A DNA stretch of 64,000 nucleotides from Cloeon dipterum (taxonomy: Eukaryota > Arthropoda > Insecta > Ephemeroptera > Baetidae): the NCBI RefSeq assembly GCF_949628265.1, contig NC_088789.1, positions 34,403,883 through 34,467,882 on the forward strand. The letters run 5' to 3'. Positions 3,301 to 28,048 of the stretch are shown here, one piece after another. Position numbers and translations under genes: made by a program. Every line of letters begins with the position of its first letter. Positions within the stretch are counted from its first letter, which is position 1. The notes beneath the pieces were generated by a model. The model saw only the letters and a list, made by a program, of their open reading frames with translations, was not told the origin of the DNA and made no database searches.

Positions 3301-6300
3301 GGTTGAAACCCGTGTTTTCCAGAAGGAAACGGCACATTTCCAACCTTCCGCTTCGCACTGCTAGATTCAGTACGTCTTCACCGTCAGTTGTGCTTCGATC
3401 CTTGAAGTCTGGGTAATGTGAGAGTAAATATTGAGCGACTTTCTCATGTCCGTGGTAAACAGCATGATGTAAAGCATTCCAACCGAGTGAATCTTGATCT
3501 CCTTCCTTACTTGTTTCCTCGTGAAGGAACGTGACGAGCTCCAGGTTACCAAATTTTGCCGCCACGTTCAGAGCAATGTGATTTTCATAAAAGTCCCGTG
3601 CTTCTCTTGCTCCGTGCTTGAAAAGAACCTTTACGCACTCCACACTGCCCTTTGCACAAGCCTCAAAAAGGACATTTCGCTGTTGCACCAGGTAATCTTT
3701 ATCAATGCCGTTCTCGAGAAGCAAGTCCAGCATTTTGCTGTGTCCTTTGGCCACCGCAAAAAACCCTGCATCGATTTCATGGCTTCTTGATCGGATCAGA
3801 TCGGGCAAACTAGAGAACTTCTCTTTTAACTTGTTGAAAAGGTCTGTGGCATTGTGTATAGCTGCTTGGCTCAGCAATGGAGGTAAGATTTCAATCAACT
3901 GTTGCTCGTGGTCAATCACGCCCATCTCGAGCAGTTCAACGGCGATTTCTTCACTCTGAATTGAATCTATCAATAATTCTCGTCTGAAATATTTCAGGTT
4001 GATGTCTTTAGAATTATTGAAGGAAATTTTCGGCTTCAAGAGATCAAAAACATGTTTCAGGTTCTCTGAAAAAACACGTTTGAAGAATGGCAAGGGAAAT
4101 TCCAACCGCAGGTTGAAGTATTCCAAATGCAATCCTCTATCTTCCTCGTCCGTCAGAGTTTCGTAAAAGTAATTCAGAGTGCGTCTGCACTCCTTAAATT
4201 TGCTGTCCTGGTCAACTTCAAACATCTGTATTTCAGATTCACCAGTTTCCTCAACGTCACTAATGAACTGCTGCGTGGTGAGGAATTCGGCGAATGTGTG
4301 ATGCAAGAATGTGACATTTCCCTCCTCAACGATTGCAACCCCAAAATCGTTCATTCTCTCCAAATCTTTTTCAGTCACGCCAGGGCCAACGAGGCTGATG
4401 TTCCTCAGAAAGCGTGATGCAATCAGTCGAATCGATTTCAAGGCCAGTTCCGTTTGTTCCGAGAACACATTCGCGTTGTTGCGGTCGTACCCTTTCCTCA
4501 CCAAGCACAGTTCCAACTTTTTCCGGACGACTTTGTCATAGACTTGGTATAAATTTCCTTCACCGTCGCACTCGGCTAACATGGAGAGATGCAGAGGGTT
4601 TTCCAGAATGTCCTTGTTTGGAAACATGTCCAAAAACTGCTCGCACTCTTGCTTAGTTTTTTCGCTGATCATCTGTAGGAGCTCGATTTGCTTTTCTTTG
4701 TTGAACGGATCGATTTTAGCGAGTGCCGCTTTGTTTATCTTCGCCAGGATCGCATCGGCCTCGTGAGGTCTCGTTCCGATCAAAATGGGGACGCCTTTCT
4801 TATTCAAGGTCTCCACGAAATTCAGAACCTTTTCACGGTGGTTTGGACAGATTTCATCAAATCCGTCGAGAAGAACCAACGCCTGTTTGCCGTCGATCCA
4901 ACTCTTCACTTCCTCGCTAGAAAAGTGCGTGCTCTTCGCGAGGAAATTTACTTCATTCAACTTTCTTCCTACAAAGCAAACCGCATGCTCTGGAAGTGAG
5001 ACGTGCAGAATTTTCAAATTGGAATCGTTCCTTCCAAGCTGATAAGCGACTTCTCTGAGAACGGTTGTCTTTCCAGCACCAGCCACGGAACTCACGAGCA
5101 AAACTCTGCTTTCTTGAAAGAACTTTCTCGCTTCTTCCAGCAACTCATCAAAGCTTAGATTTTGCACGGGAGCAGGAGCTCCAGAATTTAGTCGGGAAAA
5201 GTCAGGCTTGACAAAAGATCTAGGCTGTTCTGGAAAATTGAGCAGATATTGCAGTGTAGAGTTTAGAAAATCTTCACATGGTTTATCGTCAGGCTTCAAT
5301 ACAAGTAGAGTCGAGAGGAGTTCCTGCAGGCTTTTGCCCTGTTTTAATTCGTTTCCTTGGAATATTTTGATCAGGTTCTGGACATTTTCTGCCGGGAATG
5401 TTTAAAAGAATTAGTTTTTCAAATATTAAGTTTCAAGAAGTTGTACCATTGGATTTCAAAACTAGGACTAGCCACCCACTATGGTTTGTTGCCGAAATAC
5501 TCATTAAAGGGTTGAATAGAGGAATCTGCAATACGAAACGATTAATTATATCTTATAATTTAGACTACATTAAAATCTGACGTTTTCATGGCTTAGCGTT
5601 TTGGGCTGATGAACCAGGAAAAGTATTTTAGGCCTTCCGATCCATTTATGATTTTTCGGGCCGATAAATCCGAGCAAAATGTCCGTGATTGCAACCTCGT
5701 CGTTGTCCACTAACACGCAAACTTCCTTTGACTCTTCTTTCTCGCTCACTTCGCCAAACAAACAGGTCAAAACGCAGCCAACGTCTTGTTCCAATTCAAG
5801 AACTATAAAAAATAATTAAATATAATTTTGTCAGATGAATCTATAAATACCTTCGTTTAAATACGAGTCCAAAGATTTCCGACTCAACGTCCGCCCGCTG
5901 GTTTGAAAATTTAAATTCCTATGGAGTGCATTTTCAAGAAGCTCTATTTCTTTCGTAAGCTGTTCAAAAAAGAAGAACGCTCGTCTCCCTCGAATATTTT
6001 GCCCTGATTCCGACTTCCAAGGAAACTGCTCCATGTTTGACGTTGTTATGGTCGCTTTTTTCCGTATTATTGCGTCTGTGGTCGAATGTTTTTGGGATTT
6101 TAAGCTACTCCTAATACCAAAAATTAAAAATTAGAAAACTATTTTCAAAAGTTCAACAAATTAACACTCACTTTGCGACGGTGAAGGTCTGGTTTTGCGC
6201 GAACATTTTTATTTCAGGGGTCTGGCCTTGGTACTTTTGCGTCACAAGGTTGCAGCCTTGCGACACTTTGTGAATTTGAAACTGCATCATCGAAAGAACA

Positions 6301-7339
6301 ACCAGCAGGGGTTTGTCATCGCCAATAGAGTTTAGGACGTTGCAAAATGAATTAGTTATCCACGATCCTTTTTCACTTCGAACAGCCATTGTTGCTGAAA
6401 TTTTATTTAAATTTAGAAAATCCGGAGATTTATGAGAGTTAATTATACTTTCAACAGTTGAGTAGAAAATGAATAAATTGTTCATGGCTGGGGAGGACGT
6501 GATCCTGCAAGAATTCCGGTTGTCGTAGTTGGAAATGTCTTTGCTAGGACTGAAAATTTCATCTTCCAGTTTCCCTCGACACGGCTGAAATTCGTATAAT
6601 TAATTCAAAATTATGCGGAGACACAATTAATTAACGTACGCCAAAGACCGTAAATTTAAGGCACTTCTCAAATTTGGTCAGGTTCTTTAAAGATCTAAAA
6701 ACGTCCTCTGTGTTGAAGTGAATAAAACCAAGCTGATTATTTTCACTCCTGTGGTCCGTCCAAATTTTTCCATCTCTGTCTCCGTGAGAGAGAAAAAAGA
6801 GCACAAAAACCGACGGTACGTCTAAAAAAAGATTAATTTGAAGAATTTAATCATGCAATAATGGTCTTCTCACCTTTTGAGCTAAAGAATTGCAACAGCT
6901 TTTCCTCGTCGGAGAGAAGTTGGAGCAATATTTCTTTTCTCGGCGACAAAATGCTTCGGAAATTGCAATTTCTGTTCTCTTTGAAGGTTTTCCTCAGTTT
7001 TTCCACGTCCTCTGCATCACCCGCTCGAATCCACTGTTTTTCCTTTGCAAAGTCGTAGTGGACAACCAGGACAAAGACACTATTTAGGAAATGTGATATT
7101 TAATAAAATCCTTAAAGCGATTTTTAATTCATTACTTATCTGCATTTTGTTTGGCATTTGTGTGGAAAAAGCCAAGCCGCGCCTTGCCTTCCGGTTGACC
7201 CTGAGCCTCACCTGAGGAGTAAAAGATATAAATATTTATAAATCTGGTCAATTTGCAAATAAATTTGAATGTATTTACCAATTCTTACGACTTCGTCGAT
7301 TGTTTCGATTTGATTTGCAGGCGTAAGGGTCTCATCCAT
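350..7339 (-). CDS. Caspase / pseudocaspase / NACHT / ankyrin-repeat receptor (NLR-like), 2160 aa
   Basis: Ten exons join in one frame with GT-AG borders: 7339-7279, 7211-7136, 7079-6874, 6821-6640, 6584-6449, 6394-6172, 6110-5851, 5802-5582, 5525-5447, 5388-350. Residues about 46-294 are a caspase p20/p10 domain with the expected Arg64, His127 (LSHGD), Cys177 (PCRG) and Arg226 (VRSEKGSW). Residues about 330-510 are a second caspase-like fold in which the His site reads LFG and the Cys site reads HQPK, so it should be inactive. A NACHT NTPase follows: Walker A GAGKTT at 585-590, Walker B LLDGFDE at 654-660, and the NLR-type FLHHTFAEFL at 842-851. Ankyrin repeats fill about 1021-2141. By family knowledge, NACHT drives nucleotide-dependent oligomerisation and ankyrins bind ligands; here the protease would be fused in cis. 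No CARD, death domain, signal peptide or membrane segment is seen. The start is the only ATG that opens the frame upstream of the first donor. Confidence 0.9.
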
Positions 7340-7690: not shown

Positions 7691-7853
7691 TTTAGAATTT
7701 AATAAGCAAATTTGCCTCCGCTCTGGAAATGAAAATTGAAGTAATGCGCAGAAATCGTTTTCATGAACACACACACAGCTTAGTTTTTTCCTTCAATAAA
7801 ACAAGAGATTTCACAAAAGCCAATTTATATAGTATTTTTATTCAAAATTGGTG

Positions 7854-10800
7854 TTACACTTGCTCGCAGATAAATCTAGCAAAGAGCCCAGCAAAAACTC
7901 CTTGAAATTCTGGATTATTTACATTTTTGTAATAGAAGTGAATGTCTGAGATTTCTTTTGTTGCATAATATGGTGTTTCCAACGTATCATATCCGTAAAA
8001 ACCGACAATCGACTCAGCGCAAGGGTACCTTTTGGTCGGATCAGGGTCGAACATGTCGTCTGGAACCAAGGTCCTGCTGCTGCACCAAACCTCGTGCGTT
8101 TTGCTGATGAATTCCGTGTCGCCCAGCAGGAGAGTACCCATATTCATGTCTCCATAGATGTCTAAACATCGAAAAATTTTCATTTTTAACAAGCAAACTC
8201 AACACTTGACATGCTGCTTAAAACCTCTGCTTATTTTATATCATAATAAATAATTTTCTTTTTAATTTGAGCAGATTGCAACCATTTTAAATAATATGCT
8301 TTGAACTTTTAATATTCAAGAGCTATCAATATTTTCCGACCAGAATTTTTTCAATGCTTAAATTCTTAACAAATCAAACAAGAGCCGAGAAGAAAATTAA
8401 ACAAAAACAAACTTAAAAATGGACCTACTTTAAATTTGTGTACGTACCAATTAATTCTTGGGCGATAGAAAGATCAGATAAGGTTTGAGGTTCGAACAGT
8501 CGCATTCCAAGCTTGCAGCAATGCAGATATGCATCAACCGGGTTCTTTATATAGATTAATATATTCATAGTTGGTTCAAAAACAATTGGTAATTAATTAA
8601 TTGTACCCGATCTTTATTTTTGTCTTCATATGACACAAAGTAGGTTTTGCCTTGAAATATAATTTTCTTCCCAATGGTATCTTGGAAAATATTTTAATTT
8701 GAGAATAGCCATAAAGAAAATCTATATGTTCACCATTATTCGCAGTGTTTAGTGAATCGATAGCTGCTTGCTAAAACAAAAAATATTAAATTATTAATTT
8801 GAACTATAGTTTTACAGAATAATGTACATTTTTAATGCACGGATATGAATTTGAAAGCCAACAAGATCTCCAAACTGGAACGCACGGAACTGGTGGTTCA
8901 ACCTAAACTTAAATTAGATCCGCCAAAAATAATAGATAAATCCCTTTATTTGATCTGACCACTGGCCCAGTGCCAAAGTTATTCGAGACTATGTTGAAAA
9001 CCATGTCGGGAGCTTTTTCCTGTCCACACTTGTATACTTCGAACGCAGTCACGCACTCGTCATCGAAATCTTAAAATTTTATTACGCTTGACCCGTAAAA
9101 TAGATGACAAAAAGTTTACTTTTTCCGCCGCACTCGTCATGGACCTTAAGTCCATCTTCCAGTTTTTGAGGTGCACCCTGGGTCGCAAGCTCAATTTGTC
9201 GTAACAATGCAATGCTGTTCACCTCTCCAAAGGACATCTTCAAAATTAGTTGAAATATATTCAAGCCTATTTAATGTCTTATTAAAAACATAAAGTGCGC
9301 TTTAATGAAAAAAAAAATTAATTCCAGAAACGACTCTTTTAAGATTGGGATGCCAAAAGGGAAGTGAGTTACCAATCCAAACATGTTTCCTACGCATCTG
9401 ATGAAGCACTGAATTATTTGGAATAAGATCAGATTTCATTCGACTGAAAAATTGTAGTAAACCTTCTGGCGGAGTGTGATGTTTATTTTTTGCAAATAGG
9501 TCGGTTTCATGAGCGAGTAGAGTTCAACTGTGTTAAAATTCAAAATTATTCTTTTGATCTTAATATTCCTCTCAAAATTATGTACCATCAGTGACTTGCC
9601 AAGTTTCAAGGCATTCATTCAGCTTGGCGACCTGGCTCTGGCCCCGCTTCTGCACATCGCACAGAAACTGTTTCTGTTCATTGCAATCCGCAGTTGCCAA
9701 AAGAACCGAATCGTTCCTCGCTTCGAGGTAAACGCACTCGAGGCCTATCTTAGGGTGACCTTCCTTCCACTTCAGATCTTTGTTATTGAAATCGCGGTCA
9801 AGGAAGCACCAATGAAAGTTTCCATTGCATCCTAGAGCCGTTCCCGACAGCCAAAAATCTCCAATTGTATGTGGTGGAAACTCTTTTAAAATAAATTAGA
9901 CAAATTCTGATTTATTTTAAATAAACCCTACTTGTGATTAAATTGGAAATGCATTGTAATTTGTCTGATGTGTCTAAGAAGGTCATGCTCATTCTAAAGC
10001 TGCAACACGTTTCCCAGGCACTGGCCCAATTCATCTTGAAGGAGACAAAAATATTTGGTCATAATTTAAGAAAATTATCATCGATTTACTCTCATCTTCT
10101 TGTAGAACAAATAATTGCGGCCGCACCCATTAAACCACTCGCCATAAGATGCAAAGTCTGTTAATACAAATTTTAATAAAATTATACAACTTTAAAAAAA
10201 AGAATGGTAGTACTAATAAGTCGATCACCAGGGGCAAACAGTGAGGCCTTTTATTTAACTTCATAAATATTATCTAATATTGATTAATTGTAATTTTACG
10301 TCACGCTGGCAGAATTTCGGACAAGCGACAACGCATGGCTTTGGAGTCACGATAAGTGGCATCTCAAATTTTATAATAAGGTTTAATTATGTGTGTATAA
10401 TTATCGGCAATCAGTCATACTTTGCAAGCGTAAATATATCTGTTGGAGCAATTCCTATCAGTCAGGACTGCTTGCGTGGAATTCATAACAAAGCTGAAGT
10501 GAATGCATTGTTCACTGCCTCCAAGGTTGTCCGGCTGACCGCTTGCCCATTTAAGGCCCTGGTCCAGTGTGCTTGTCCCTGCTGACTCGCACCACGACCA
10601 CTGACCCTCAGGAGCCCCTTTCCACGTTCCGGAAGTCCAGTAGTTGTAATTAATTGGCCAATTGTCTGCAAATTTCTTATATAAACATTTCCACAGAGCA
10701 TTTTACAACCTTTAAGCAAGACGGTCAAGTTTGAGAGGCCTGCTTGCTCCTCAGCGTTGTCAATAGTGAGCGTTTTCATTCCCAAAGAACAACACTGACT

Positions 10801-12719
10801 CCAAGTTCCATCCCAAGTCATCTGGGCGTGTCAAAGTTAAAATCATGATTGCAATAATATCTCTAATAGGTTAAACCAGCTTATTTCCAAAGAGATATGT
10901 GTATATGCCGACGTCAGTCCAATAACCGAATGAATTTTTACCTGGAATAGAAATGAAATGAAATTTCCATATTATCACAAAAGGTCTTGAATTTCATACG
11001 TTTCAAGTTCCCATCCTTGTCAAACAAAGAAACCTGGAATAAAAATGTAAATTATACATTACTTTCTACTTCTTTTTTTGCTAATAACATTTTTCGAGCA
11101 GGTTTTTGGGCAGTCGAACTCCAATTGGCAAATGTAGGGCAGAACATCGTCGCATTTTTTATGCACCAACCCTTTTTGGGAGGTGACAACGGCCAGGCAG
11201 CGTTCCAAAGAGGAAGGGATTGTGTTGGTCGGCAGCCAAAACTTGGACGAAGACGTGAGGGTTGTTGAAATATCGGAGCCCGTCGAGCACCACGCGTATT
11301 TTTTCGCCAAATTGCAATTTTCATCCTCATTAGATCCACTTGTCCAATAAGAACCCTCTAATCAGGATATATTCAATACATGCAGACCTCGATAAATATT
11401 TAGATTAAAAAAACCTTTCAGATTGGAAAGACATTCCAATTCCGCGATAGAAGTGACAGCCAAGAGCGCCATTTTCATCGACTTGCATCGCAAAGCAGCT
11501 TCATTTCTCGGAGCCTGAAGCAAATCTGATATATTTTTCTGATTTTTGTAATTTCATGCTCTTACAGTTACGCTAGAAACATAATATTTCTTTTGGCACG
11601 TGCTCACACCTTGCACAGAACCATCGGCTACAAGAAATTTATTTATAAATCACTCAAATAAAATTTAATGCTACTCACAAGAAGAGGGTTTGATCGATGG
11701 TGTGCTCTGTTTAACTTTAGTAAAATCATACAAATTTAAAAGGAAATAACTTACCAACATAAAGTCGTTGAAATCTGTGCAAGACAAGGTGCACGGCTTA
11801 GGCTATGGAATTTTTATTTGAAAATCCAGATAATCAAATTCAGATTCTATAAAAATACTGTCGCAGTAGTTGGTGGTATTTTGGTGGTTGTTGTTGTCAT
11901 TTTTATCATAGTCGTGGCTGCTGTTGTTGCTGCTGCTTTTGGTGTTGTGGTCGTCACTGTTGTAGATGCAGCATTTGTGGTTGTTGTTGTTGTATCTGCA
12001 GAGGTTGTTGAAGACGGGGAAGTGTTCAATTTAGCCGTCATGGCGCTACTGGACGTTTCAAGGAGAAGAACCGTCGATTTGCTTGATTGATCAGCTTTTT
12101 GAGTGGTGCTAGTCTCAGACTTTACAGTCGATTCCACTCTGTCGTTGGGGCTTATTGATTCCTGTGCTTTTTTTAAGAAAATATTTGACATTTAAAATAA
12201 ATACAGCGATTAATCATAAAATATTTAATGTCGTAAATAATAAGTTCGTGCTGATTTTTACTCATCATCGCTTCGACTGTTGTTGGTTTGGTGACGTCAC
12301 TCTCGCCCCAGTTTCCTGTCGTTTCCACTGAATTCGCCAGCAGCGTTGTTGGCAGCCTGTTGGCCTTGATAAAGCAAAATTTAGGGAGTGGCTCATACTT
12401 TTTGGCCACGTACTTTGCTCTCTTGGTCCAATGTAGTTGGCGTGTTGTTCATCGGCCGTTTCTTCATCACGGAAGGCAAGCATCTTTTGAAGCCGCAACA
12501 CTTGATTATGGTTTTCCTTCGGATAACTTAAAGGCCTATTTTTAAAATAATCTTAATATTTAAGACCCTTGTGATACCTTTAGAGTTTTCCGATTTCCAC
12601 AATTTCTTGTTCTGATTCAGACACAATATTAAACAAGTTAAATATTCCCAGTTAATTCTACTCACGTGAGTTAGATCGAATAATAAAACCAAAGTGAAGC
12701 TCCAATACAGTATTCGCAT
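7854..12719 (-). CDS. Secreted C-type lectin / odorant-binding fusion protein, copy 1 (1019 aa, 28 exons)
   Basis: All 28 exons could be joined in one frame from ATG at 12719 to TAA at 7854, with every phase agreeing. Order: signal peptide (1-18), basic linker (19-101), Thr/Ser-rich mucin-like exon (102-204, Thr runs from about 140), lectin-like domain 1 (238-363), domain 2 (407-525), domain 3 (566-695), an OBP domain (about 700-823), and lectin-like domain 4 (849-1019, ending FICEQV). The OBP cysteines are 705, 736, 740, 783, 792 and 801, spaced C-X30-C-X3-C-X42-C-X8-C-X8-C, inside the classic insect OBP pattern. Domain 2 has QPD at 487-489, the motif linked with galactose-type binding; no domain shows a clear WND. 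The protein should be secreted and O-glycosylated. Lectin domains bind glycans and OBPs bind small hydrophobic ligands in known families; what the fusion binds is unknown. In this copy the mucin exon must use an early donor (ACA|GTATTT at 11859). Confidence 0.88.
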
Positions 12720-12745
12720 TGTTCTCTAGTTCTCTTCTGCATCTG

Positions 12746-12751
12746 AACTGA
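12746..12751 (-). promoter_or_regulatory. Initiator-like TCAGTT upstream of lectin-OBP copy 1
   Basis: A TCAGTT motif, matching the arthropod initiator consensus TCAGT, lies about 30 bp upstream of the ATG in a block conserved in all three lectin-OBP copies (equivalents near 19120 and 24955). I place transcription starts here by motif and conservation only. Confidence 0.35.
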
Positions 12752-13773
12752 ATTTCACCGCGGCTGCTTGTGTTTTTGCGTCGGCCTGACGTGTTTTGTA
12801 TACATCCTGCTGCCATGTTGTTCACACCTTCCTGTGACGACCCAATTTTAAAAGTATCAACGCTTGGATGCTGTGTTTTTCCCTGCCTGAAATATTGTTG
12901 TTTTGTGATACACTGAATCAAAAATTTTCATCTGCCCTCCTGCAACTTAAACTGTTGGTGATTTTCTGGCACTCCTTTATATCATTTAAAAACACAATTT
13001 TATTTTCCTTTGTGAATACAACTTGTTTTGCTCTTGAATTTTCTATGAGATTTTAGTGATCGAGGTGATGCTCTGCTTTTCCGAGCCGGCAAAATCCAAC
13101 TCAAAGGCTCAGGGGGGGGGGGGTTTGGATGTGACACCACTTAAATTGGGGCGGCATAGTGCACGTAAGTGATTATGGGAAAAATACATTTTGGGGCGTG
13201 GGAGAGGTCGAGATACTTTTAGTTTAATAGTTATCTTTCTACGATTAATGAAAAATACATAAATAGTGGTCTGCTGATGCGCGGCGTCAGATCAGGCTAA
13301 AGAGTGTGACGACACCAAGCCACGCCTTTTGCCTTCATGTCGACCCTGAGCCTGAAATATCTATCACTTCCCGTGTATATTTAAACTTACTGACTAGTGA
13401 CCAGAGAGAAGACTTGACGACTTTCTCGTTGTTGCTCTTCGGCCTGTGAGTTTCACCCTCGCGACGAGCATAATATGATACTTATTATCTACCCGCTTAG
13501 AGACAAAAACAACATTGACTGTACAATATATAATCACTCAAAAGCCCGCAGTCGCTATCGCGCTGCCTGGTGGAGAGATAAACTCGATTACTTAGAATTT
13601 ATAGCCGATAAGTTAATAAGCAAATTTGCCTCCGCTCTCTATGGGATTTAAAATTGCAGTAACACGCAGAAATCATTTTCATGCACACAGTTCAATTTTA
13701 TTTCTTCCATAAAACAAGACAGTTCACACAAACCGATGAAACCAAGTAATATTTTTTTTATTCAAAATCCGTG
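12752..13773. other. Intergenic: lectin-OBP promoter region, poly-G tract and duplicated NLR 5' fragment
   Basis: The first 150 bp are conserved upstream of each lectin-OBP copy. A run of about 13 G lies near 13111-13123. From about 13290 to 13640 is a diverged copy of the 5' end of the caspase-NLR gene, including part of exon 2 near 13310-13360. It keeps no usable reading frame and the rest of that gene is absent. The remainder is AT-rich 3' flank of the next gene. Confidence 0.65.
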
Positions 13774-16700
13774 TTACACTTGCTCGCAGATAAATCTAGC
13801 AAAGTGACTACTCTGAAAATTTTGAGTTTTTTCATTGATGTAATAGGAGTGAATGTCTAGCAGTTCTGAATCGGTAAGCATTGTCATCGTATCATCTCCA
13901 TAATATGTGACAATCGACTCAGTGCAAGGGTACCTTTCGGTCGGATCAGGGTCGAACATGTCGTCTGGCACCAAGGTCCTGCTGCCGCACCAAACCTCGT
14001 GCGTTTTGTTGATGAATTCCGTGTCACCCAGCACGATAAATTGGACATCCTTGAAGAAGTCTCCAAGCAAGTCTGCATACCGTAAAATTTTCATTTTTCA
14101 CTTATAACCTTACAATATATATTATATATTCATATTAATTTGAGCAGCTTGCAACCATTTTTGTTGATATTTTGTGTTAAAATAATTTTTCTGGCTAGAC
14201 GAGAGAAAACAAGAGCCGCAAGAAAATTTAACAAACACAAAATAAAAGTTGGCGCTGCATAATGTTTTTTTAATTGTTTATATACGTACTAGTTAAGTCC
14301 TTGGTGATGTAAAGATCTTTTAAGGTCTGAGGTTCGTAAAGTCTCATTCCAATCTTGCAGCAATGCTGATATGCATCAATCGGGTTCTTTATAGATCCAT
14401 TTATTTAGCAGGTTTAAAAAACTTGGTATATAACCGCACCAAATATATGTCAGGATTATGATTTGCCACATAATAGGTCTTTCCTAGATATGTAACTTTC
14501 TTCCCTCTAGAATCTTGAGAAAATATTTAATTTTGAGTATAATATTCATTAAGAAAGTCAAATGTTTATATACCATTCTTCGCAGTGTTTAGTGAATTGA
14601 TTGCAGTTTGCTGAACAAAAAAAATTTAATTGTTAATTTGAACTATGGTTTTACACAAAAATATACGTCTGGAATGCACTCGAATGAATTTGTAAGCCAA
14701 CAAGATCTCCAAACAGGAACGCACGGAACTGGTGGTGACACCTAAACTTTAAAATTAGATCCGCAAAAAATATTAGATAAATCTCTTTGATCTGACCACT
14801 GGCCCGGTGCCGAAGTTATTCGAGACCATGTTGAAAACCATGTCGGGAGCTTTCTCCTGTCCACACTTGTATACTTCGAACGCAGTCACGCACTCGTCAT
14901 CGGATGCTTAAAATTTTTTAATGCAAGACCCGTAAAATACATGCCAAAAGTTTACTTTTCCCGCCGCACTCGTCTTGCACCTTAAGTCCGTCTTCCATTT
15001 TCTGAGGTCCACCCTGGGTCGCAAGCTCAATTTGTCGCAACAACGCAATGCTGTTCACGTCTCCAAATCCCATCTTCAAAATTATTAGAAATATAATTAA
15101 GCATAATTTAATATCATATTGAGAACATAAGGTGCTTTGTACAAAATAAATATAATCTTTAATCGACAAAATTAACAACTGTTTTAAGGTTAGTATGCAA
15201 ATAATGATGTCACTGTGGTCCCCTTGTAGTTCCCGCCCGCTAGAGTCAAAATTTCATGTTTGTTTTGAGCGCCACAGGTCAGCCTTGCGCTCGGCCAATC
15301 AAAGCGCAGCGCGGGGACGCCATTAGTCCGAGTCTGGAGTTGAGTAGAAGCACGTGTTGGACTCAGGCGGCGTGGCGTCATTCCAGACTTTTGTGTGCGA
15401 TCAGGGCGCCCTGAGTGACCGAGGTGAGGTTTACGATGAGCGATCTTTTGAGTTATTTTGCGAGCGAGCGAAGCGATTGACGTGGGACATTATTTTTCTC
15501 ATATGAGTTACGTTAGTGTTTCCTCTTAGCCAAAACCCGCTCGTTTCCATTGCGACAACATTTCCTTAAACCAAGTCAGGCTTTATAGAGTTGATTCTAA
15601 GGTCCCATATTATATATAGCGCTAAGATCAGGTTATGAGAGTGTGAGTTTGCTAACTATTTGTGCCGCGAGCGAGAATATAATCTAAAGTGAGATCCCCT
15701 ACCCCCTAGACACCGACCCAACCCTGAACCGAGTAGCCCCGAGCAGCAACCGGCACAAAAAGGGGAAATGAGTTACCAATCCAAACATGTTTCCGATGCA
15801 TCTGATGAAGCACTGAAATATTTCGAATCAGGTCAGAATGTATATAACTGAGAAATTGGAGTAAACCTTCTGGCGGAGTGTGATGTTTGTTCCCTGCAAA
15901 TATGTCACGTTCATGAGCGAATAGAGCTCACCTGAAATAAAATTCAAAATCTTTCTTTTAATCTTGATGCAAGTCTGTCAAAATTACGTACCATCATTGA
16001 CTTGCCAAGTTTCGAGGCATTCATTCAGCTTGGCGACCTGGCTCTGGCCCCGCTTCTGCACATCGCACAGAAACTGTTTCTGTTCATTGCAAGCTGCTGT
16101 TGCCAAAAGAACCGAATCGTTCCTCGCTTCGAGGTAAACGCAGTCGAGGCCTGCCTTCGGGTGACCTTCCTTCCACTTCAGATCTTTGTTATTGAAATCA
16201 CGGTCAAGGAAGCACCAATGAAGGTTTCCATCGCATCCTAAACCCGTTCCCGACAGCCAAAAATCTCCGATTGTGTGTGGGGGAAACTCTTTTAAAATAA
16301 ATTAGACAAATTCTGATTTATTTTAAATAAACCCTACTTGTGATTAAATTGGAAATGCAATGTAATCTGTCTGATGTATCTAAGAAGGTCATGCTCATTC
16401 TAAAGCTGCAACACGTTTCCCAAGCACTGGCCCAATTCATCTTGAGAGATACAAAAATATTTGGTCATAATTTAAGAAAATTATCATCCATTTACTCTCA
16501 TCTTATTGTAGAACAAATAATTGCGGCCGCACCCATTAAACCACTCACCGTAAGATGCAAAGTCTTATTTCTGTTTTAAAATATATGAGTTTCAACAAAT
16601 AAAAATAGTACTTATAAGTTGATCATCAGGGGTAAACAGTGAGGTCTTTAATTCACTTAATTAAAATTTCGTTCAAAGGATTAAATATTATTTTACGTCA

Positions 16701-19094
16701 CGCTGGCAGGATTTTGGACAAGTGACAACGCATGGCTTTGGAGTCACGATAAGTGGCATCTGAAATTTTATAATAAGGTTTAATATATGTATAATTATCG
16801 GCAATCAGTCATACTTTGCAAGCGAAAATGTATCTGTTGGAGCAATTCCGATCAGTCAGGACGGCTTGCGTTGAATTCATAGCAAAGCTGAAGTGAATGC
16901 ACTGTTCGCTGCCTCCAAGGTTGTCCGGCTGTCCGCTTTCCCATTTGAGGCCCTGATCCAAGGTGCTTGTCCCCGCGGACTCGCACCACGACCACTGACC
17001 CTCAGGAGCCCCTTTCCACGTTCCGGAAGTCCAGTAATTGGAATTCATTGGCCAATTGTCTGCAAATTTCTTATATAAACATTTCCACAGTACATTTTAC
17101 AACCTTTAAGCAAGACGGTCAAGTTCGTGAGGCCTGCTTGCTCCTCAGCGTTGTCGATAGTAAGCGTTTGCATTCCCAATGCGCAACACTGACTCCAGGT
17201 AGCATCCCAAGTCATCTGGGTGTGTTAATGATAAAATCATGATTGCAATAATATCTCTAATAGGTCAAACCAGCTTATTTCCAAAGAGATATGTGTAGCT
17301 GCCAACATCAGTCCAATAACCGAATGATTTTTTACCTAGAATAAAAATGAAATGAAATTTCAATATCCCATGTAATATTTCTTGAATTTCATACGTTTCA
17401 AGCTGCCATCGGTGTCAAACAAAGAAGCCTGAAATAGAAATGTTAATAGAACATTATATTTTAACACTAAATTTTAATTTCTAACATTTTTCGAGCACGT
17501 TTTAGGGCAGTCGACCTCAAACTGGCAAATGTAGGGCAGAACATCGTCGCATTTCTTATGCACCAACCCTTTTTGGGAGGTGACAACCGCCAGGCAGCGT
17601 TCCAAAGAGGAAGGGATGGCGTTGGTTGGCAGCCAAAACTTTGACGAAGATGTAAGGGTTGTTGAAATATCGGAGCCTGTCGAGCACCACGAATACTTTT
17701 TCTGCGTGTTGCAATTTTCATCCTCATTCGATCCACTAGTCCAGTATGTACCCTCTATTTAGGATATATTCAATTCGTGGAAACTGATAATATTCAGGTT
17801 CAAACAACCTTTTACGCTGAAAAGACAGTCCAACTCTCCGATAGAAGTGACTGCCAAGAGTGCCATTTTCATCGACTTGCATCGCAAAGCAGCTTCATTT
17901 CTCGTTGCCTGAAGCATATCTGACATATTTTTCTGATTTTTGTCATTTCATGCCCTTACAGTTACGCTAGATATATAATATTTCTTTTGGCACGTGCTCA
18001 CACCTTGTACAGAACCATCCGCTGTACAAAATAAATTGTTAACCATTCAATGACATTTCAATGCAACTCACATGGAGACGGTTTGATCGACGGTGTGCTC
18101 TGCTTAACTTAAGTAAAATGATGTACATTTTAAAGAATATATCTTACCAACATAAATTTGTTGAAATCGGTGCACGACAAGATGCACTTTGGCTGTGGGA
18201 TTTATATTTGATACCAGATAATCAAAATTAGTTTCCAAACAAACCGCCGTAGTAGTTGGTGGTATTGTGGTGGTGGTTGTTGTCGTCGTAGTTTTGATTA
18301 TGGTCGTGGTTGCTGCTGCTGTTGTTGTTATTGGTGCATTTGTTGTTGTTGATGTGGTTGTTGATGCTTTTGTTGAAGTTGTACTTGACGGGTTAGTTGA
18401 AATTATTTCCGTTGAGGTTGTTAAAGACGGAGAAGTGTTCAGTTTAGCCGTCATGGCGCTACTGGTTGCTTCAAGAGGAGGACCAGTCGTTTTGCTTGAT
18501 AGGTCAGATTTTTGAATAGTGGTGCTCTCAGATCTTCCAGTCGTTTCCACGCTGTCGTTGGGACTGATTGATTCCTGAACTTTATTTGAAGAAATCATAC
18601 AATTTTTCATGTAAATAGGTTCGTGCAGATTTTTACTCATCATCGCTTCGACAGTTGTTGGGTTTGTGACGTCACTCTCGCCCCAGTTTCCTGTCGTTTC
18701 TACCGGACTCACCAGCAGCGTTGTCGGCAGCCTGTTAGCCTTGGAAATGCAAAATTTAGGGTGTGGCTTGGAATTTAATGTCATTTACTTTGCTCTGTTG
18801 GTCCAATGTAGTTGGCGTGTTGTTCATCGTCCGTGTCTTCATCACGGAAGGCAAGCATCTCTTCAAGCCGCAACACTTGATTATGGCAATCCTCCGGTTA
18901 CCTTTAAGTGTCCCACTTTACACAAATTTAATATTTCAGCCCCTACGATACCTTTAGAGTGTCTCGATTTCAACGGTTTCTTGTTCTGATTCAGTCAGGA
19001 TATTAATCATATTAAAAGTGTACCTATTTAATTAACTTACATGAGTTACATGGATTAATAAAACCAAAGTGAAGCTCCAATACAATATACGCAT
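13774..19094 (-). CDS. Secreted C-type lectin / odorant-binding fusion protein, copy 2
   Basis: This has the same exon plan as copy 1, from ATG at 19094 (hydrophobic start MRILYWSFTL) to TAA at 13774. The exons I checked keep frame and splice sites: signal exon, basic exon 3, mucin exon, lectin-like domain 2 with QPD, the OBP exons and the final FICEQV exon. The OBP exons keep the six cysteines, and exon 20 gains an N-glycosylation site (NVT). The mucin exon (about 18210-18570) is longer than in copy 1 and uses a later donor after NFDYL. The intron between the second and third OBP exons carries a 550-bp LTR-type insertion (15208-15757). I expect about 1030 residues but did not count every exon. 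Confidence 0.85.
15208..15757 (+). mobile_element. Solo-LTR-like insertion in a lectin-OBP intron
   Basis: Copies 1 and 3 of the lectin-OBP gene lack this DNA at the equivalent intron position, so it is an insertion. It starts TGTCACTGTGG and ends CCGGCACA (TG...CA form). Its two ends match the two ends of the element at 43389-44564. It has no coding capacity and is read as a fossil LTR of the same family, shorter than the other member. Confidence 0.6.
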
Positions 19095-19839
19095 TGTTAT
19101 CTAGTTCTCCTCTGCATCTGAACTGAATTTCACCGCGGCTGCTTTTGTGTTTGCGGCGGCCTGACGTGTTGTACATCCTGTTATCATGTTCCTCACACCT
19201 TCCTGTGACGACCCAATTTTTGTTTTTAAAGTATCAACGCCAGCTGCTGTGGTTTTCCCCACTGACGTATTGATGTTGGATGGTACAGCTTCATACTGAA
19301 CTAAAAGGTTTCTGCTGTGTTTCTCCTTCAACTTTAACTTTCGATCAAGCAAGCTATCCATCAACCTTCGTGGTTGGGTGCCAGGCAGGAGATCAATAGG
19401 CAAGGATGAGCTTCACCAGGGACAGGTAGAGGCTACCATTTTGACCTTTTGTGGTCATCTACAATCTACACAGGTGTGCTTCTTAAGGAGACTCTCCTTA
19501 GTGCTTCTCGTCTCCGACTGCGAGTAGTGCGAGTAATACTCTCGCGACGAGCATTTAATACTAATCTCCCCACCTCCGAGACAAAAATTGACTTGACTGT
19601 GCTAATCACTCACCAGTCGTCAGTCGCTCTCTCGCGAGCGCTGACTTAACATCGATTTGTTCACAAAGATGAAATATTCACTGCGTTAATATGCAAATTT
19701 GCCTCCGCTCTGGAATTAAAAATTGAAGTAACACGCAGAAATCGTTTTCATGCACACAGCTCAAGTTTTTTCTTCAATAAAACAAGAGAGTTAGAAGTAA
19801 ACCAAAGAAAACAATTAAAATTTTTATTCAAAATCCGTG
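19095..19839. other. Intergenic between lectin-OBP copies 2 and 3
   Basis: Nearest copy 2 is the conserved promoter block, with an initiator-like TCAGTT near 19120. About 19495-19640 is the third, shortest copy of the module that lies upstream of the caspase-NLR gene. A 100-codon minus-strand reading frame at 19101-19403 falls in promoter/5' leader DNA and has no counterpart of the same form in the other copies, so I do not call it a gene. Confidence 0.6.
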
Positions 19840-22800
19840 TTACACTTGCTCGCAGATAAATCTTCTAACGACACCAGAACCAGGTGTTTGATGTTGTATG
19901 TAATAGAAGTGAATGTCAAGGATGGATTTATTTTCATCGATCGCCATATACATCGTAGGGCCATTGTTATAACTGACAATCGACTTAGTGGTAGGGTACC
20001 TTAAGGTCGGATCAGGGTCGAACATGTCGTCTGGAACCAAGGTCCTGCTGCCGCACCAAACCTCGTGCGTACTGTTGATGAATTCCGTGTCGCCCAGCAA
20101 GATAAAGATGGCATCATGGAATTCAGGTCCACCAGCCAGTTCTTTCAATCGATAAATTTTTATTTTTAACAAGCAAACAAACTTAATATGCTGTTCATAA
20201 CTAGGGCTGTGAATTTTAAGCCAATTTTTTGGCTGAAAATGTCGACTATTTTTATAATATTTCTAAGAGCAAATTAGTCGATTTTAGACGGTTTTATTTT
20301 TCATTGTTTCCTTCACATTTTTTTCATATATTTCATATAAATTCATGTTTAACTTGTGTATTTTATTGTATTTTTCAGAGCCAATTTGCAGATATTATTA
20401 AACCTTTTAATATATATCAGTATATATACATACTTTATTTAATTTGAGCAGCTTGCAACCATTTTTTGCAATATTTTTATGTTTCAATATCAAAGAAATA
20501 CAATCTTTTAATCAATATTTTTTGCCAAGACGCGAGATTCCATCAAGTTTTAGAATGCTTAAATTTTTTATATATGAAACAAGAGCCGCAAGAAAATTAA
20601 ACCAAAACAAGCTTAAAAATTGCCCTGTATATGATTTTTTAATTGCGTATACGTACCTGTTAAGTTCCTGGTGTAATAAAGTTCTTTTAAGGTCTGAGGT
20701 TCGTACAGTCTCATTCCAAGCTTGCAGCAATGTTGGTAAGCATCAACCGCGTTCTTTATAGATTAATTTATTTGTAGTTGGTTTAAAAAAATTGGTAATT
20801 AATTTACCAAATTCCAAGCAGGGTCATCATATGACACAAAAAAGGTCTTGCCTTGAAATGTAATTTTTATCCCACTGGCGTCTTGGAAAATATTTTAATT
20901 TGAGTATATAACCACCAGGAAAATGAATGCTTACCAGTATTAGCATTTATTGCATTGATAGCTGTTTGCTAAAAATTATTAAATTGTTTATTTGAACCAT
21001 ATGGTTTTACAGAATAATATACGTCTGAAGCGCACGGAAATCCAGCACCTGAAAGCCAACAAGTTCTCCAAACCGGAATGCCTGGAACTGGTGGTTCAAC
21101 CTAAACTTAAATTAGATCCACAAAAAAATAATAGTTCTATCTTTTGATCTAACCACTGGCCCGGTGCCGAAGTTATTCGAGACCATGTTGAAAACCATGT
21201 CGGGAGCTTTTTCCTGTCCACACTTGTATATTTCGAACGCAGTCACGCACTCGTCATCGAAATCTTAAATTTTGTGTGAAAAAAGTGTGATTTTTAGAAT
21301 ACATGCCAAAGTTTACTTTTCCCGCCGCACTCGTCTTGGACCTTCAGTCCGTCTTCCATTTTCTGAGGTCCACCCTGGGTCGCAAGCTCAACTTGTCGTA
21401 ACAATGCAATAGCGTTCACGTCTCCAAAGCCCATCTTCAAAATTATTAAAATCAAGAGCCTAATAAAAATCTTATTGAGAACATAAGGGGCGCATTGTTG
21501 AAAAGAAATTTAGTAGCAGAAACAATTTTTTTTAAAATTTGTACGCAAAAGAAGGAAATGAGTTACCAATCCAAACATGTTCCCGATGCATCTGATAAAG
21601 CACTGAAAATTTTCGAATAAGGTCCGAATGTATTTAACTGAAAAATTGGAGCTAACCTTCTGGCGGCGTGTGATGTTAGTTTCTTGCAAATAGGTCGCGT
21701 TCATGAGCCAGTAGAGTTCCTCTGTGATAAAATTCAAAATTATTCTTTTGATCTTAATATTCCTCTTAAAATTATCTACCATCATTGACTTGCCAAGTTT
21801 CGAGGCATTCATTCAGCTTGGCGACCTGGCTCTGGCCCCGCTTCTGCACATCGCACAGAAACTGTTTCTGTTCATTGCAATCCGCAGTTGCCAAAAGAAC
21901 CGAATCGTTCCTCGCTTCGAGGTAAACGCACTCGAGGCCTATCTTAGGGTGACCTTCCTTCCACTTCAGATCTTTGTTGTTGAAATCGCGGTCCAGGAAG
22001 CACCAGTGAAGGTTTCCTCCGCATCCTAAAGCCGTTCCCGAAAGCCAAAAGTCTCCAATTGTATGTGGTGGAAACTCTTTAAAAATGAATGAGACAAATT
22101 AGGATTGTATTATAAAAAACATATACTTGTGATTATATTGGAAATGCATTGTAATTTGTCAGATGTATCTAAGAAGGTCAGGCCCATTCTAAAGCTGCAA
22201 CAGGTTGCCCAGGCACTTGCCCAATTCAACTTGAGAGATACAAAAATATTGAATCATAATTTACGTAATAATTCTCATCGACATACTCTCATTTTATTGT
22301 AGAACAAATAATTGCGGCCGCACCCATTAAACCACTCACCGTAAGAAGTATGGTCTTATTTCTGTTTTAAAAAATAAAAGTTTAAAAAAATAAAAATAAT
22401 ACTTATAAGTTGATCATCAGGGGTGAACAGTGAAGCCTTTATATCAACAATATATTATAATGTTCTTATTAAGATGTAAGTTATTTTACGTCACGCTGGC
22501 AGGATTTCGGACAAGCGACAACGCATGGCTTTGGAGTCACCATATATGGCATCTGAAATTAAACAAAATGTTGATTAAACATGCATCTGTATGGCAATCA
22601 GTCTTTACTTTGCAAGCGTAAATGTATCTGTTGGAGCAATTCCTATCAGTCAGGACGGCTTGCGTGGAATTCATAGCAAAGCTGAAGTGAATGCACTGTT
22701 CGCTGCCTCCAAGGTTGTCCGGCTGACCGCTTTCCCATTTGAGGCCCTGATCCAAGGTGCTGGTCCCCGCGGACTCGCACCACGACCACTGACCCTCAGG

Positions 22801-24925
22801 AGCCCCTTTCCACGTTCCGGAAGTCCAGTAGTTGTAATTAATTGGCCAATTGTCTGCACATAACTTATAGAAACATGTCCAAATTGCATTTTACAACCTT
22901 TAAGCAAGATGGTCAAGTTTGAAAGTCCTGCTTGCTCCTCAGCGTTGTCAATAGTGAGCGTTTTCATTCCCAAAGCGCAACACTGACTCCAGGTTCCATC
23001 CCAAGTCATCTGCGGGTGTGTCAAAATTAAAATCTTAATCGCAATAATACTTGAATATGCTAAACCAGCTTATTTCCAAAGAGATATGTGTAGCTGCCGA
23101 CGTCAGTCCAATAACCCAATGAATTTTTACCTAGAATAAAAGAGAAATCAAAATTCTGGATCCCATATTGTCTTTAATTCTATACGTTTTAAGTTCCCAT
23201 CCAAGTCAAACAAAGAATCCTGGAGTAGAAATGATAGTAAATCAATAAACTTTAACTATGAAATTTCATTTCTAACATTTTTCGTGCAAGTTTTTGGGCA
23301 GTCGACCTCAAACTGGCAGATGTAGGGCAGAACATCGTCGCATTTCTTATGCACCAACCCTTTTTGGGAGGTGACAACAGCCAGACAGCGTTCCAAAGAG
23401 GAAGGGATTGTGTTGGTCGGCAGCCAAAACTTGGACGAAGACGTGAGGGTTGTTGAAATATCGGAGCCTGTCGAGCACCATGAGTATTTTTTCGCCAAAT
23501 TGCAATTTTCATCCTCATTAGATCCACTCGTCCAATATGTACCCTCTAATCAGGATATAATCAATTCATCCAATCCGTGATACACATTCAGGGTTAAAAA
23601 CCTTTCACACTGAAAAGACAGTCCAATTCCGCGATAGAAGTGACAGCCAAGAGCGCCATTTTCATCGACTTGCATCGCAAAGCAGCTTCATTTCTCGGAG
23701 CCTGAAGAATATCTGACATTTTTTTCTGATTTCTTTTAATTTTAATCCCTTACAGTTACGCTAGATACATAATATTTCTTTGTGCACGTGCTCACACCTT
23801 GCACAGAACCATCGGCTGCAAGAAATTTATTTATAAATCACTCAAATGAATGTTTATGCTACTCACAAGAGGAGGGTTTGATCGATGGTGTTCTCTGTTA
23901 ACATTCAGTAAAATCATATTATATAAGAGTTAAAAAAATAACTTACCACCATATAGTTGTTGAAATCTGTGCACGACAAGATGCACTTAGGCTAAGGAAT
24001 TTGTGTTTAAAATCAAGATAGCTAAAATCAGATTCTAAGCAAACCGTCGTAGTAGTTGGTGGTGTTGTTGTGGTTGTTGTCATCGTCGTCGTTTTGATCA
24101 TGGTCGTGGTTACTGTTGTTGTTGTAGTTGTTGGTGCATTTGTTGTTGTTGATGTGCTTGTTGGTGCTATTGTTGAAGTTGTACTTGACGGGTTAGTTGA
24201 AATTATTTCCGTTGAGGTTGTTAACGGCGGAGAAGTGTTCAGTTTAGCCGTCATGGCGCTACTGGTTGCTTCAAGAGGAAGAACAGTCGTTTTGATTGTT
24301 AGATCAGATTTTTGACTGGTGGTGGTCTCAGATCTTCCAGTCGTTTCCACGCTGTCGCCGTGACTGACTGAGTCCTGAGCTTTTTTTTAAGAAAATATTT
24401 CACATTAACTACATACAGCAATAAATCATAAATTATTTCGTGTAAATAAGTTCGTGCTGATTTTTACTCATCATCGCTTCGACAGTTGTTGGTTTGGTGA
24501 CGTCACTCTCGCCCCAGTTTCCTGTTGTTTCCACCGAACTCATCAGCAGCGTTGTTGGCAGCCTGTTGGCCTTGATAAAGCAAAATTTTGGGAGTGGCTC
24601 TTACTCTTTGGCCACGTACTTTGCTCTTTTGGTCCAATGTAATTGTCGTGTTGTTCATCGGCCGTTTCTTCATCACGGAAGGCAAGCATCTCTTCAAGCC
24701 GCAACACTTGATAATGGTTTTCCTTCGGATAACTTAAAGGCCTATTTTTAAAAATTATCTTAATATTTAAGACCCTGTGATACCTTTAGAGTGTCTCGAT
24801 TTCGACTGTTTCTTGCTCTGATTCAGACCCGATGTTAAACAAGTTAAGTATTCCAAATTAATTCTACTCACGTTAGCTACATCGAATAATAAAATCAAAG
24901 TGAAGCTCCAATACCATATACGCAT
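19840..24925 (-). CDS. Secreted C-type lectin / odorant-binding fusion protein, copy 3
   Basis: Third tandem copy, ATG at 24925 (MRIWYWSFTL) to TAA at 19840, with the same 28-exon plan. Exons inspected are in frame: basic exon 3 (near 24610-24730), Thr-rich exon (24040-24390), lectin-like domain 1 (23265-23550 plus 23600-23705), domain 2 with QPD (22607-22852), domain 3 (21780-22080), OBP exons (21170-21800) and the terminal lectin exon (19840-20150). OBP exon 20 carries two N-glycosylation sites (NAT, NIT). The donor of the mucin exon is uncertain, either a weak ACG|GTTTGC or a later site. Its position next to the other two copies shows origin by unequal crossing over. Confidence 0.85.
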
Positions 24926-26170: not shown

Positions 26171-28048
26171 TTATTTGATGTCAACACTGGGGATGGCATT
26201 TATTATGTCGCTGCGGTAGGAATTGATGTTATCAAACAGAAAGTGGCCACCCATGTCACCATTGGCATTGCACCAAATGTTAGCGTTAACGCCTTGCACT
26301 TGGCCATTGATCGCTAACATCAGATACCACTGGTAAGTGGTAGTGGGGCCAGACGAACTGTCGGTAAATATCTACACAAAATTAAAATCAAGATTAATCC
26401 ACGCGTTATATAATTTCGAACGCACCGTGCAAAATCCCACGGTGTCATCCTTCTTCATGCAAATTTTTTTAGTGGTATCTCCAAATTTTTCTGCGGTATC
26501 GCAAGTCACGGAGTCATATGCAATTGCAGCAACCTTCCTCGGTACGGGCTAAATTGCAAGATAACCCACTCGAAACATTGGTAATCAATGGATTTATAAA
26601 ACTTACCGAGGTGTTATTGAAAAAAATCACCGTTGCGCTAACGTTTGTTGAGAGGTCGTTAAAAAGCGACGCCGTCATGGGAAACTTTGTGCCTCTGAAT
26701 ATTCTGCAAAACTTGACGTACGTGAATAGGGCAGAAACAATTTGCTGAATCTTAAAAGGTGTTCGAAACACGCCCAGCTGGTCGATGATTTCCATGTTCG
26801 AAACATTTCTGCAAATAAAAGTAGTGTGAAGTTTAGAATATGCGTTTTGATCGATTATATTGATGTAGATTAATCGATGTACAGTGCGATTAGGCTTCAC
26901 TGGGGCGGAATACGGCAACGAAACCTTGACAAGCAATGGCAACGCTGGGCATTAGGATTGCATTGTACAGTGTTTCAAGGTCGAGATAAAAAACGGTGCC
27001 GTGTAATCCGCCCAATTAGAAATTTTTCTCAAGAAGATAAAGAATTTAATTCGCCACTCTAACCAGCAGTATTAATATGGGAAAATATTAAATGGCAACA
27101 AAGTTATTAAACCCGTTAACGTTTGCTTCATTTGAAGTCAGGAGATATCTGCCACTGACAACAAGTCCTGGAACCGTTTTCGGGTACGTCTCATCCAGCA
27201 AATTAAGCTTCACCTGCGTTAAAATCATCATTTCAGCGAAATCCCCGAGGTAAACGAGATTTCCCATCACTTACCACGTAGGGGAATTCACCGGGGCTGG
27301 CATCCATGGCCACTGTCTGACTCTTCACACCTGGAAAGGGATAAGCAAGCAGATTTAAAAAAAAATGATATGTCTGTTAGCTCAAAGAATTGGTATTTCA
27401 AAATGTTTTTTTTTCTCTTTTTATCCCTGTCCTCTCGGACCGGGAAGGGCGCGCACTGCACTAGCACGAATGCTGAAACCCGGGTCCCAATAACACCGCG
27501 AACAGATAACATGGGCGCAGCAGGCCGCACAGGGACCCAGCCCACCTGAAGGGCCACTTGCCTCCGCACCGAGGACTGCATTGAAACGCTACACATTCGT
27601 GTCCCGTGAAGCCAAATCACGATGCTGGAAAGGTGCAAACCAGCAAGTGGCGCTTTGTACCAGCCCGTTGAGCAATTTGAGCATTTCGAGTCACTAAACT
27701 AACCACTTTCTGCCATCTCCGACATTGGGTAGCCAGTATTAGAACTCAGAACTGCTCAACCCACCGAAAAAAAAGTCAACCAAAAGGTGCCCATTGGGTG
27801 CCCGCGTTCGGTCACTCGGCTACCCCCCGTGGGCACCCAGATGGGCACCCATTGGTTATACCGCATGTCCAACCCTTCGGGCACCCGCGAGTAAATACCT
27901 CCCATTGCTTTGACACTCCTGAGAGTGCCTTAACAATGCGAGCCAACGGGCTGATATTGGAGTGAAAGGGAAGTTCAAAATAATTACGTGTCGCTGGAAG
28001 GGCGCAGAGGCAGAGGAGGACGCCAAACAATACGGTTGACCACTTAAT
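26171..28048 (-). pseudogene. Secreted-family copy A: six exons, start codon lost
   Basis: Exons 28048-27988, 27330-27275, 27213-27113, 26808-26607, 26548-26426 and 26371-26171 join in frame to 248 codons, ending IPSVDIK. In the other copies the first codon is ATG before AAGTGG; here it reads ATT, and no other in-frame ATG precedes it, so translation is doubtful although the rest is intact. The family has a signal peptide, a short mature N-terminus ending GEFPYV, then a fold with VVSGRYLLTS and a C-terminal INSYRSDI. These faintly recall chymotrypsin-fold proteases with the catalytic residues missing. I do not recognise it with certainty. Intron 1 holds a GC-rich block shared with copies C and D. 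Confidence 0.6.

What the first reader, a model, noticed from the sequence alone, without database searches (positions are those of the whole stretch)
7854..24925. C-type-lectin domains fused to an odorant-binding protein domain in one secreted protein, three tandem genes
In copy 1 the 28 exons splice in frame and place six cysteines with spacing 30-3-42-8-8, which fits the insect OBP signature, between the third and fourth lectin-like domains. OBPs are normally single-domain proteins of about 140 residues. A glycan-binding plus small-ligand-binding secreted protein with a mucin stalk is an architecture I do not know from the literature.
Basis: partly seen in the sequence, partly recalled or inferred. 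Interest (0 to 1): 0.93.

Follow-up and report, generated by a model that had tools for sequence, protein, structure and literature searches.

The report
Lectins fused to odorant-binding domain
Three neighbouring, apparently intact insect-type genes each encode one long, probably secreted protein in which lectin-type (sugar-binding) domains are joined to an odorant-binding-protein domain, a combination I did not find described, which suggests a protein that holds a surface with one part and a small oily molecule with another.

Summary
Pfam PBP_GOBP and Lectin_C both match all three whole proteins (PBP_GOBP E 9e-11, 1e-10, 1e-11). The six OBP cysteines are spaced 30-3-42-8-8 in all three. Exon 19 alone carries the end of lectin domain 3 and the first OBP cysteine in each copy, so the fusion does not hang on one guessed splice. 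The OBP part is under purifying selection (dN/dS 0.26, bootstrap 0.13-0.48), like lectin domains 1-3 (0.16-0.22). The only AATAAA shared by all copies lies just past the stop. The fourth 'lectin-like' domain is doubtful: no Pfam hit in the two copies tested, a partial match to the others, dN/dS 0.77. Ten paper searches listed no OBP-lectin fusion. Verdict: real; a new variant of known families; function inferred.

The parts
7854..12719 (-). Copy 1 of the fusion gene: 28 exons, 1018 aa
   Evidence: Spliced in frame, no internal stop; PBP_GOBP 9.1e-11 and Lectin_C 4.1e-12
13774..19094 (-). Copy 2: 28 exons, 1023 aa
   Evidence: Exons transferred by alignment, open, 27 of 27 introns GT-AG; PBP_GOBP 1.4e-10, Lectin_C 4.9e-12
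19840..24925 (-). Copy 3: 28 exons, 1024 aa
   Evidence: Exons transferred by alignment, open, 27 of 27 introns GT-AG; PBP_GOBP 1.2e-11, Lectin_C 1.6e-11
12666..12719 (-). Copy 1 exon 1: hydrophobic start, probable signal peptide
   Evidence: Hydropathy only; highest 12-residue window in copies 1 and 2, second highest in copy 3; no signal-peptide predictor was available
11859..12364 (-). Copy 1 exons 4-5: Ser/Thr-rich mucin-like stalk
   Evidence: About 32-40% Thr and 14-17% Ser over 105-113 residues in the three copies
11089..11802 (-). Copy 1 exons 6-10: lectin-like domain 1 with a Cys-rich linker at each end
   Evidence: Lectin_C 26.1 bits, cut-off 22.6
10421..11033 (-). Copy 1 exons 11-14: lectin-like domain 2 with QPD motif
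   Evidence: Lectin_C 27.1 bits; QPDN in 3 of 3 copies; residues 451-500 have the lowest dN/dS of the sliding scan, 0.02
9586..10362 (-). Copy 1 exons 15-19: Cys-rich linker, lectin-like domain 3, and in exon 19 also the start of the OBP domain
   Evidence: Lectin_C 23.0 bits, just above cut-off; exon borders
9586..9882 (-). Copy 1 exon 19, the junction exon: last cysteines of lectin-like domain 3 and first OBP cysteine, 16 residues apart
   Evidence: 297 bases in all three copies; cysteine positions 689 and 705
8963..9649 (-). Copy 1 OBP domain (end of exon 19 to exon 23)
   Evidence: PBP_GOBP 48.3 bits excised; six cysteines 30-3-42-8-8
14800..16055 (-). Copy 2 OBP domain (end of exon 19 to exon 23)
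   Evidence: PBP_GOBP 47.1 bits excised; same cysteine spacing
21157..21843 (-). Copy 3 OBP domain (end of exon 19 to exon 23)
   Evidence: PBP_GOBP 50.9 bits excised; same cysteine spacing
7854..8902 (-). Copy 1 exons 24-28: Cys-rich linker and C-terminal, doubtfully lectin-like, fast-evolving domain
   Evidence: No Pfam hit; partial profile match to domains 1-3, hhalign probability 59 over 80 columns; dN/dS 0.77 for residues 849-1018
7837..7842 (-). AATAAA just past the copy-1 stop, the only AATAAA found at the same place in all three copies
   Evidence: Alignment column 12 after the end of the stop codon

Best explanation
Each gene makes one secreted multidomain protein: probable signal peptide, basic stretch, Ser/Thr-rich stalk, three C-type-lectin-like domains, one classic six-cysteine OBP domain, a Cys-rich linker and a fast-evolving C-terminal domain. 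SHOWN: the spliced frame, the domains by profile, the uninterrupted lectin-OBP junction exon, three open copies, purifying selection on the OBP part. INFERRED: secretion; that lectin domain 2 (QPD motif) binds galactose-type glycans with calcium; that the OBP domain keeps a pocket for a small hydrophobic ligand; and that together they act as a glycan-tethered ligand trap or presenter on mucus, cuticle, gill or gut surface, or on microbes. I put about 0.95 on the architecture and about 0.4 on this mechanism; the figure below lies between.
For: PBP_GOBP and Lectin_C in 3 of 3 proteins; OBPs among solved structures; junction exon and 28 shared exons; dN/dS 0.26 for the OBP part and 0.16-0.22 for lectin-like domains 1-3; QPD in domain 2 in 3 of 3 copies at the most constrained place of the scan; mosquito lectin mosGCTL-1 as best solved relative of the lectin profile, 1.6e-11; single AATAAA shared by all copies lies just past the stop.
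Against: No RNA, protein, ligand or structure data. In domain 2 the usual WND is LTD, so calcium-dependent sugar binding is uncertain; domains 1 and 3 lack QPD and EPN by eye. In copy 3 the hydrophobic start is only the second most hydrophobic 12-residue window. An ATTAAA in intron 25 is shared by all copies and could end a shorter transcript after the OBP exons. The first 67 residues show no clear constraint (dN/dS 0.91, 0.44-2.34).
Confidence: 0.6

Rival explanations
1. The fusion is real, but the OBP module no longer binds small ligands: it is a disulphide-stapled helical spacer, or a protein-binding module, between lectin-like domains.
For: OBP folds are reported as structurally similar to venom allergen and tick families of unlike use (passages of PMC9779611); most lectin-like domains here lack sugar motifs, so the protein may be partly structural (and sequence).
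Against: The whole six-cysteine domain is kept over profile positions 17-112 of 113 in 3 of 3 copies, and it is as constrained as the lectin-like domains; but constraint alone cannot tell ligand binding from fold keeping.
Confidence: 0.25
2. The region makes separate transcripts: a lectin protein and an OBP from an inner promoter, or early-ended forms, so the 1018-aa chain is rare or absent.
For: No RNA evidence for the full chain; an ATTAAA shared by all copies in intron 25; 9, 5 and 11 AATAAA lie in the aligned regions of the three copies.
Against: The first OBP cysteine shares an exon with the end of lectin-like domain 3 in 3 of 3 copies; introns 15-18 are 48-57 nt, which leaves little room for a promoter and signal-peptide exon; no AATAAA inside the gene is at the same place in all copies.
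Confidence: 0.08
3. Assembly artefact or decayed copies: an OBP gene and a lectin gene misjoined, or pseudogenes.
For: One window only, no reads or second assembly; copy 2 has about 570 extra bases in intron 21 (703 nt against 132-135).
Against: Three copies that differ at 11-13% of aligned exon sites and 21-24% of aligned intron sites keep the same structure and frame; dN/dS well below 1 in the OBP part and lectin-like domains 1-3.
Confidence: 0.03

Closest known systems
Insect C-type lectins of class CTL-X (definition from passages of PMC8702095)
   Same: One or more C-type-lectin domains plus additional domains; a QPD motif of the kind that paper links to galactose.
   Different: The passages seen name no OBP domain ('OBP' and 'odorant' occur 0 times in that text); here the extra domain is an OBP.
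Classic insect OBPs (passages of PMC3428353)
   Same: Six cysteines, PBP_GOBP profile, sequence similarity to solved OBPs.
   Different: Internal domain of a 1018-1024 aa chain, not a small single-domain protein with its own signal peptide.
Double-domain OBPs of Nasonia, Drosophila OBP dimers (passages of PMC3428353) and mosquito D7 proteins (listing only)
   Same: OBP domain inside a longer secreted chain, in tandem gene clusters in Nasonia.
   Different: Those join OBP to OBP; here one OBP domain is joined to lectin-like domains.
OBP expansion of the mayfly Cloeon dipterum, 191 genes, some gill-specific (passages of PMC7250882)
   Same: A large, partly non-antennal OBP set found by profile search; a fusion like this could sit among such counts.
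   Different: Its main text has the word 'lectin' 0 times and the passages describe no fusion; I do not know whether this window is from a mayfly.

Membership tests
Classic insect OBP (as a domain) | PBP_GOBP profile above Pfam's cut-off | tested here: met
   3 of 3 copies, 41.7-45.2 bits whole protein, 47.1-50.9 excised, cut-off 22
Classic insect OBP (as a domain) | Six conserved cysteines with three residues between C2 and C3 and eight between C5 and C6 (the spacing rule is recalled; six cysteines as the mark of classic OBPs from PMC3428353) | tested here: met
   30-3-42-8-8 in 3 of 3 copies
Classic insect OBP (as a domain) | Six-helix fold with disulphides C1-C3, C2-C5, C4-C6 (pattern from passages of PMC9779611) | not tested
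   Structure prediction was not requested because the protein is spliced; sequence similarity to solved OBPs only
   Internal domain of 1018-1024 aa proteins
Classic insect OBP (as a domain) | Binds small hydrophobic ligands | not testable with these tools
   Needs recombinant protein
C-type lectin, class CTL-X | At least one C-type-lectin domain plus an additional domain (PMC8702095) | tested here: met
   Lectin_C and PBP_GOBP in 3 of 3 proteins
C-type lectin, class CTL-X | Sugar/calcium motifs EPN or QPD together with WND (motifs from passages of PMC6275457) | tested here: inconclusive
   QPD in domain 2 of 3 of 3 copies, but LTD in place of WND
Double-domain OBP / D7 | Two OBP domains in one chain | tested here: not met
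   One PBP_GOBP stretch per protein in 3 of 3

The most novel reading that the evidence does not exclude
A new class of extracellular two-input binder: lectin domains grip a glycan surface (mucus, cuticle or microbe) while the built-in OBP pocket captures a lipophilic molecule at that place, so that a scent-carrier fold has been recruited into surface-bound recognition, with a fast-changing C-terminal domain that differs between the tandem copies.
Probability: 0.3. Interest if true: 0.87.

Novelty: new variant of a known kind. Interest (0 to 1): 0.7.

Why it matters
The multi-domain OBPs that I saw described in print join OBP to OBP. An OBP-lectin fusion that is kept open in three copies under purifying selection would show that the OBP fold can be built into a large surface-type protein, and offers a direct handle on what OBPs do outside the antenna. 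It also warns that OBP counts from profile searches may include domains of larger proteins.

Tried and rejected
Own genome: none is held for this window, so copies elsewhere could not be counted; within the window tblastn at E 0.01 finds only the three. One scan of viral contigs with the OBP alignment: 57 pattern matches, none confirmed. The bacterial/archaeal and metagenome collections were not scanned. Rfam at gathering thresholds and the tRNA scan of the window found nothing.

Fourth lectin-like domain: no Pfam hit in the 2 copies tested singly; the solved-structure profile search gave only 2 weak hits, both named BH2092 protein, E 0.37 and 0.54; hhalign against a profile of the other domains gave probability 59, E 9.2e-5, over 80 columns in its first part. 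Positive selection on it was considered and not claimed: 0.77 overall (bootstrap 0.56-1.07), tail 1.00 (0.59-1.70).

An independent OBP gene nested in the lectin gene was rejected because of the junction exon. TIL_2 and Maf_N hits to the excised OBP parts are below their cut-offs. One weak solved-structure hit of the OBP part is not an OBP by name (landiscernin, E 0.054).

No listed title or start of abstract showed an OBP-lectin fusion. Three listings were capped: 20 of 25 papers, 8 of 144, 20 of 288. (0 papers) used a spelling that could not match the Pfam names and was put again in another form (5 papers). Only openly licensed PubMed Central papers are covered. UniProt and InterPro architecture tables could not be consulted, so automatic annotation may already list this combination.

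Full report
What was checked. The window was read on the minus strand and copy-1 exons were chosen by eye for GT-AG and frame. They give 28 exons and 3057 coding bases including the stop, that is 1018 residues. A three-way DNA alignment carried all 28 exons to the two neighbours; both read open from ATG to stop, with GT-AG at 54 of 54 introns. Copy 1's own 27 of 27 are partly by construction. Introns are 44-62 nt in all three copies except intron 4 (57-95), intron 21 (132-703) and intron 27 (217-515). Aligned exon sites are 87-89% identical between copies and aligned intron sites 76-79%.

The OBP domain. Pfam PBP_GOBP matches the whole proteins at 9.1e-11, 1.4e-10 and 1.2e-11 and the excised parts at 1.3e-12, 2.9e-12 and 2.0e-13, each time over profile positions 17-112 of 113. 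The six cysteines are spaced 30-3-42-8-8 in all three copies. Among solved structures the copy-1 part finds 21 sequences up to E 10, the best an odorant-binding protein at 4.7e-5. A profile of the three gives five hits up to 0.01: four are named OBPs, and the fifth, AGAP010489-PA, aligns with the same letters as one of those four.

The fusion. Exon 19 carries, without interruption, the last cysteines of lectin-like domain 3 and, 16 residues later, the first OBP cysteine; it is 297 bases long in each copy. Introns 15-18 are 48-57 nt, which leaves little room for a hidden promoter and signal-peptide exon (inference). On the other side, OBP exon 23 ends in phase 0 and is followed by a phase 0-0 linker exon. 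So the right border of the OBP module lies at an intron and the left border does not. AATAAA occurs 9, 5 and 11 times in the aligned regions, but only once at the same place in all three copies, 12 columns past the end of the stop. ATTAAA occurs 10, 13 and 8 times, once at a shared place, in intron 25, which is a result against the full chain being the only product.

Selection. Pooled over the three pairs (Nei-Gojobori, 1000 codon bootstraps), dN/dS is 0.16, 0.17 and 0.22 for lectin-like domains 1-3, 0.26 (0.13-0.48) for residues 691-823 with the OBP domain, 0.51 (0.35-0.74) for residues 68-204 with the stalk, 0.91 (0.44-2.34) for the first 67 residues, and 0.77 (0.56-1.07) for the last domain. 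Pairwise OBP values are 0.25, 0.40 and 0.17. The three pairs are not independent and dS varies by region, which may mean gene conversion, so the intervals are too narrow.

The lectin part. Domains 1-3 each pass the Lectin_C cut-off in copy 1, domain 3 barely. Domain 2 has QPD in 3 of 3 copies, with LTD where WND would stand, and residues 451-500 have the lowest dN/dS of the sliding scan, 0.02. A profile of four lectin-domain sequences (three of copy 1, one of copy 2) has mosquito lectin mosGCTL-1 as best solved relative at 1.6e-11; domain 2 alone finds mincle first, at 5.4e-6. The last domain is unproven as a lectin fold.

How it most likely works. Shown: an open spliced frame, the domains, the junction exon, selection. 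Inferred: secretion, from a hydrophobic start and no strong membrane segment (best 19-residue hydropathy 1.25, 1.34 and 1.45 in the three copies; no predictor was available, and in copy 3 the start is only the second most hydrophobic 12-residue window); an extended stalk that may be O-glycosylated; glycan binding through domain 2; small-ligand binding by the OBP domain. I commit to a glycan-tethered ligand trap or presenter at a body surface: about 0.95 for the architecture, about 0.4 for the mechanism.

Literature. Seen as passages: PMC7250882, PMC6275457, PMC5381652, PMC3428353 (12 of 14 places), PMC8702095, PMC9779611. Seen only in listings: the mosquito D7 paper PMC2994686, and papers on OBPs in tsetse blood-cell formation, PMC5231409, and in beetle pathogen resistance, PMC10928693, which make a role in defence conceivable. 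No listed title or abstract start showed an OBP-lectin fusion; some listings were capped. OBPs are reported lacking in mites, though a tick family with an OBP-like fold is described; an insect or other hexapod source is therefore likely, but I did not identify the species.

Noticed in passing
353-6599, minus strand: Next to the cluster, a 1683-codon open frame with a NACHT domain (7.5e-8) and many ankyrin repeats, and just upstream of it a frame with a caspase match barely above cut-off (Peptidase_C14, 21.7 bits, cut-off 21.4). They may be one caspase-NACHT-ankyrin gene; the joining was not tested.
   Followed up: partly
7854-8827 and the matching part of copies 2 and 3: The C-terminal domain evolves nearly without constraint (0.77, and 1.00 in its tail) while the rest of the protein is constrained; a central block around residues 928-964 is almost identical between copies.
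   Followed up: partly
15074-15776: Intron 21 of copy 2 holds about 570 extra bases compared with copies 1 and 3 (703 nt against 135 and 132), probably an inserted element.
   Followed up: no
26517-26951 (-), 31460-31786 (+), 36773-37240 (-), 40959-41195 (+): Four open frames that look alike by eye (shared CRNVSNM-like stretch) on both strands among repeats; no Pfam hit for the two tested.
   Followed up: partly
49986-50213, minus strand: Likely first exon of a legumain-like gene (Peptidase_C13, E 3.3e-5, first 22 of 258 profile positions).
   Followed up: no
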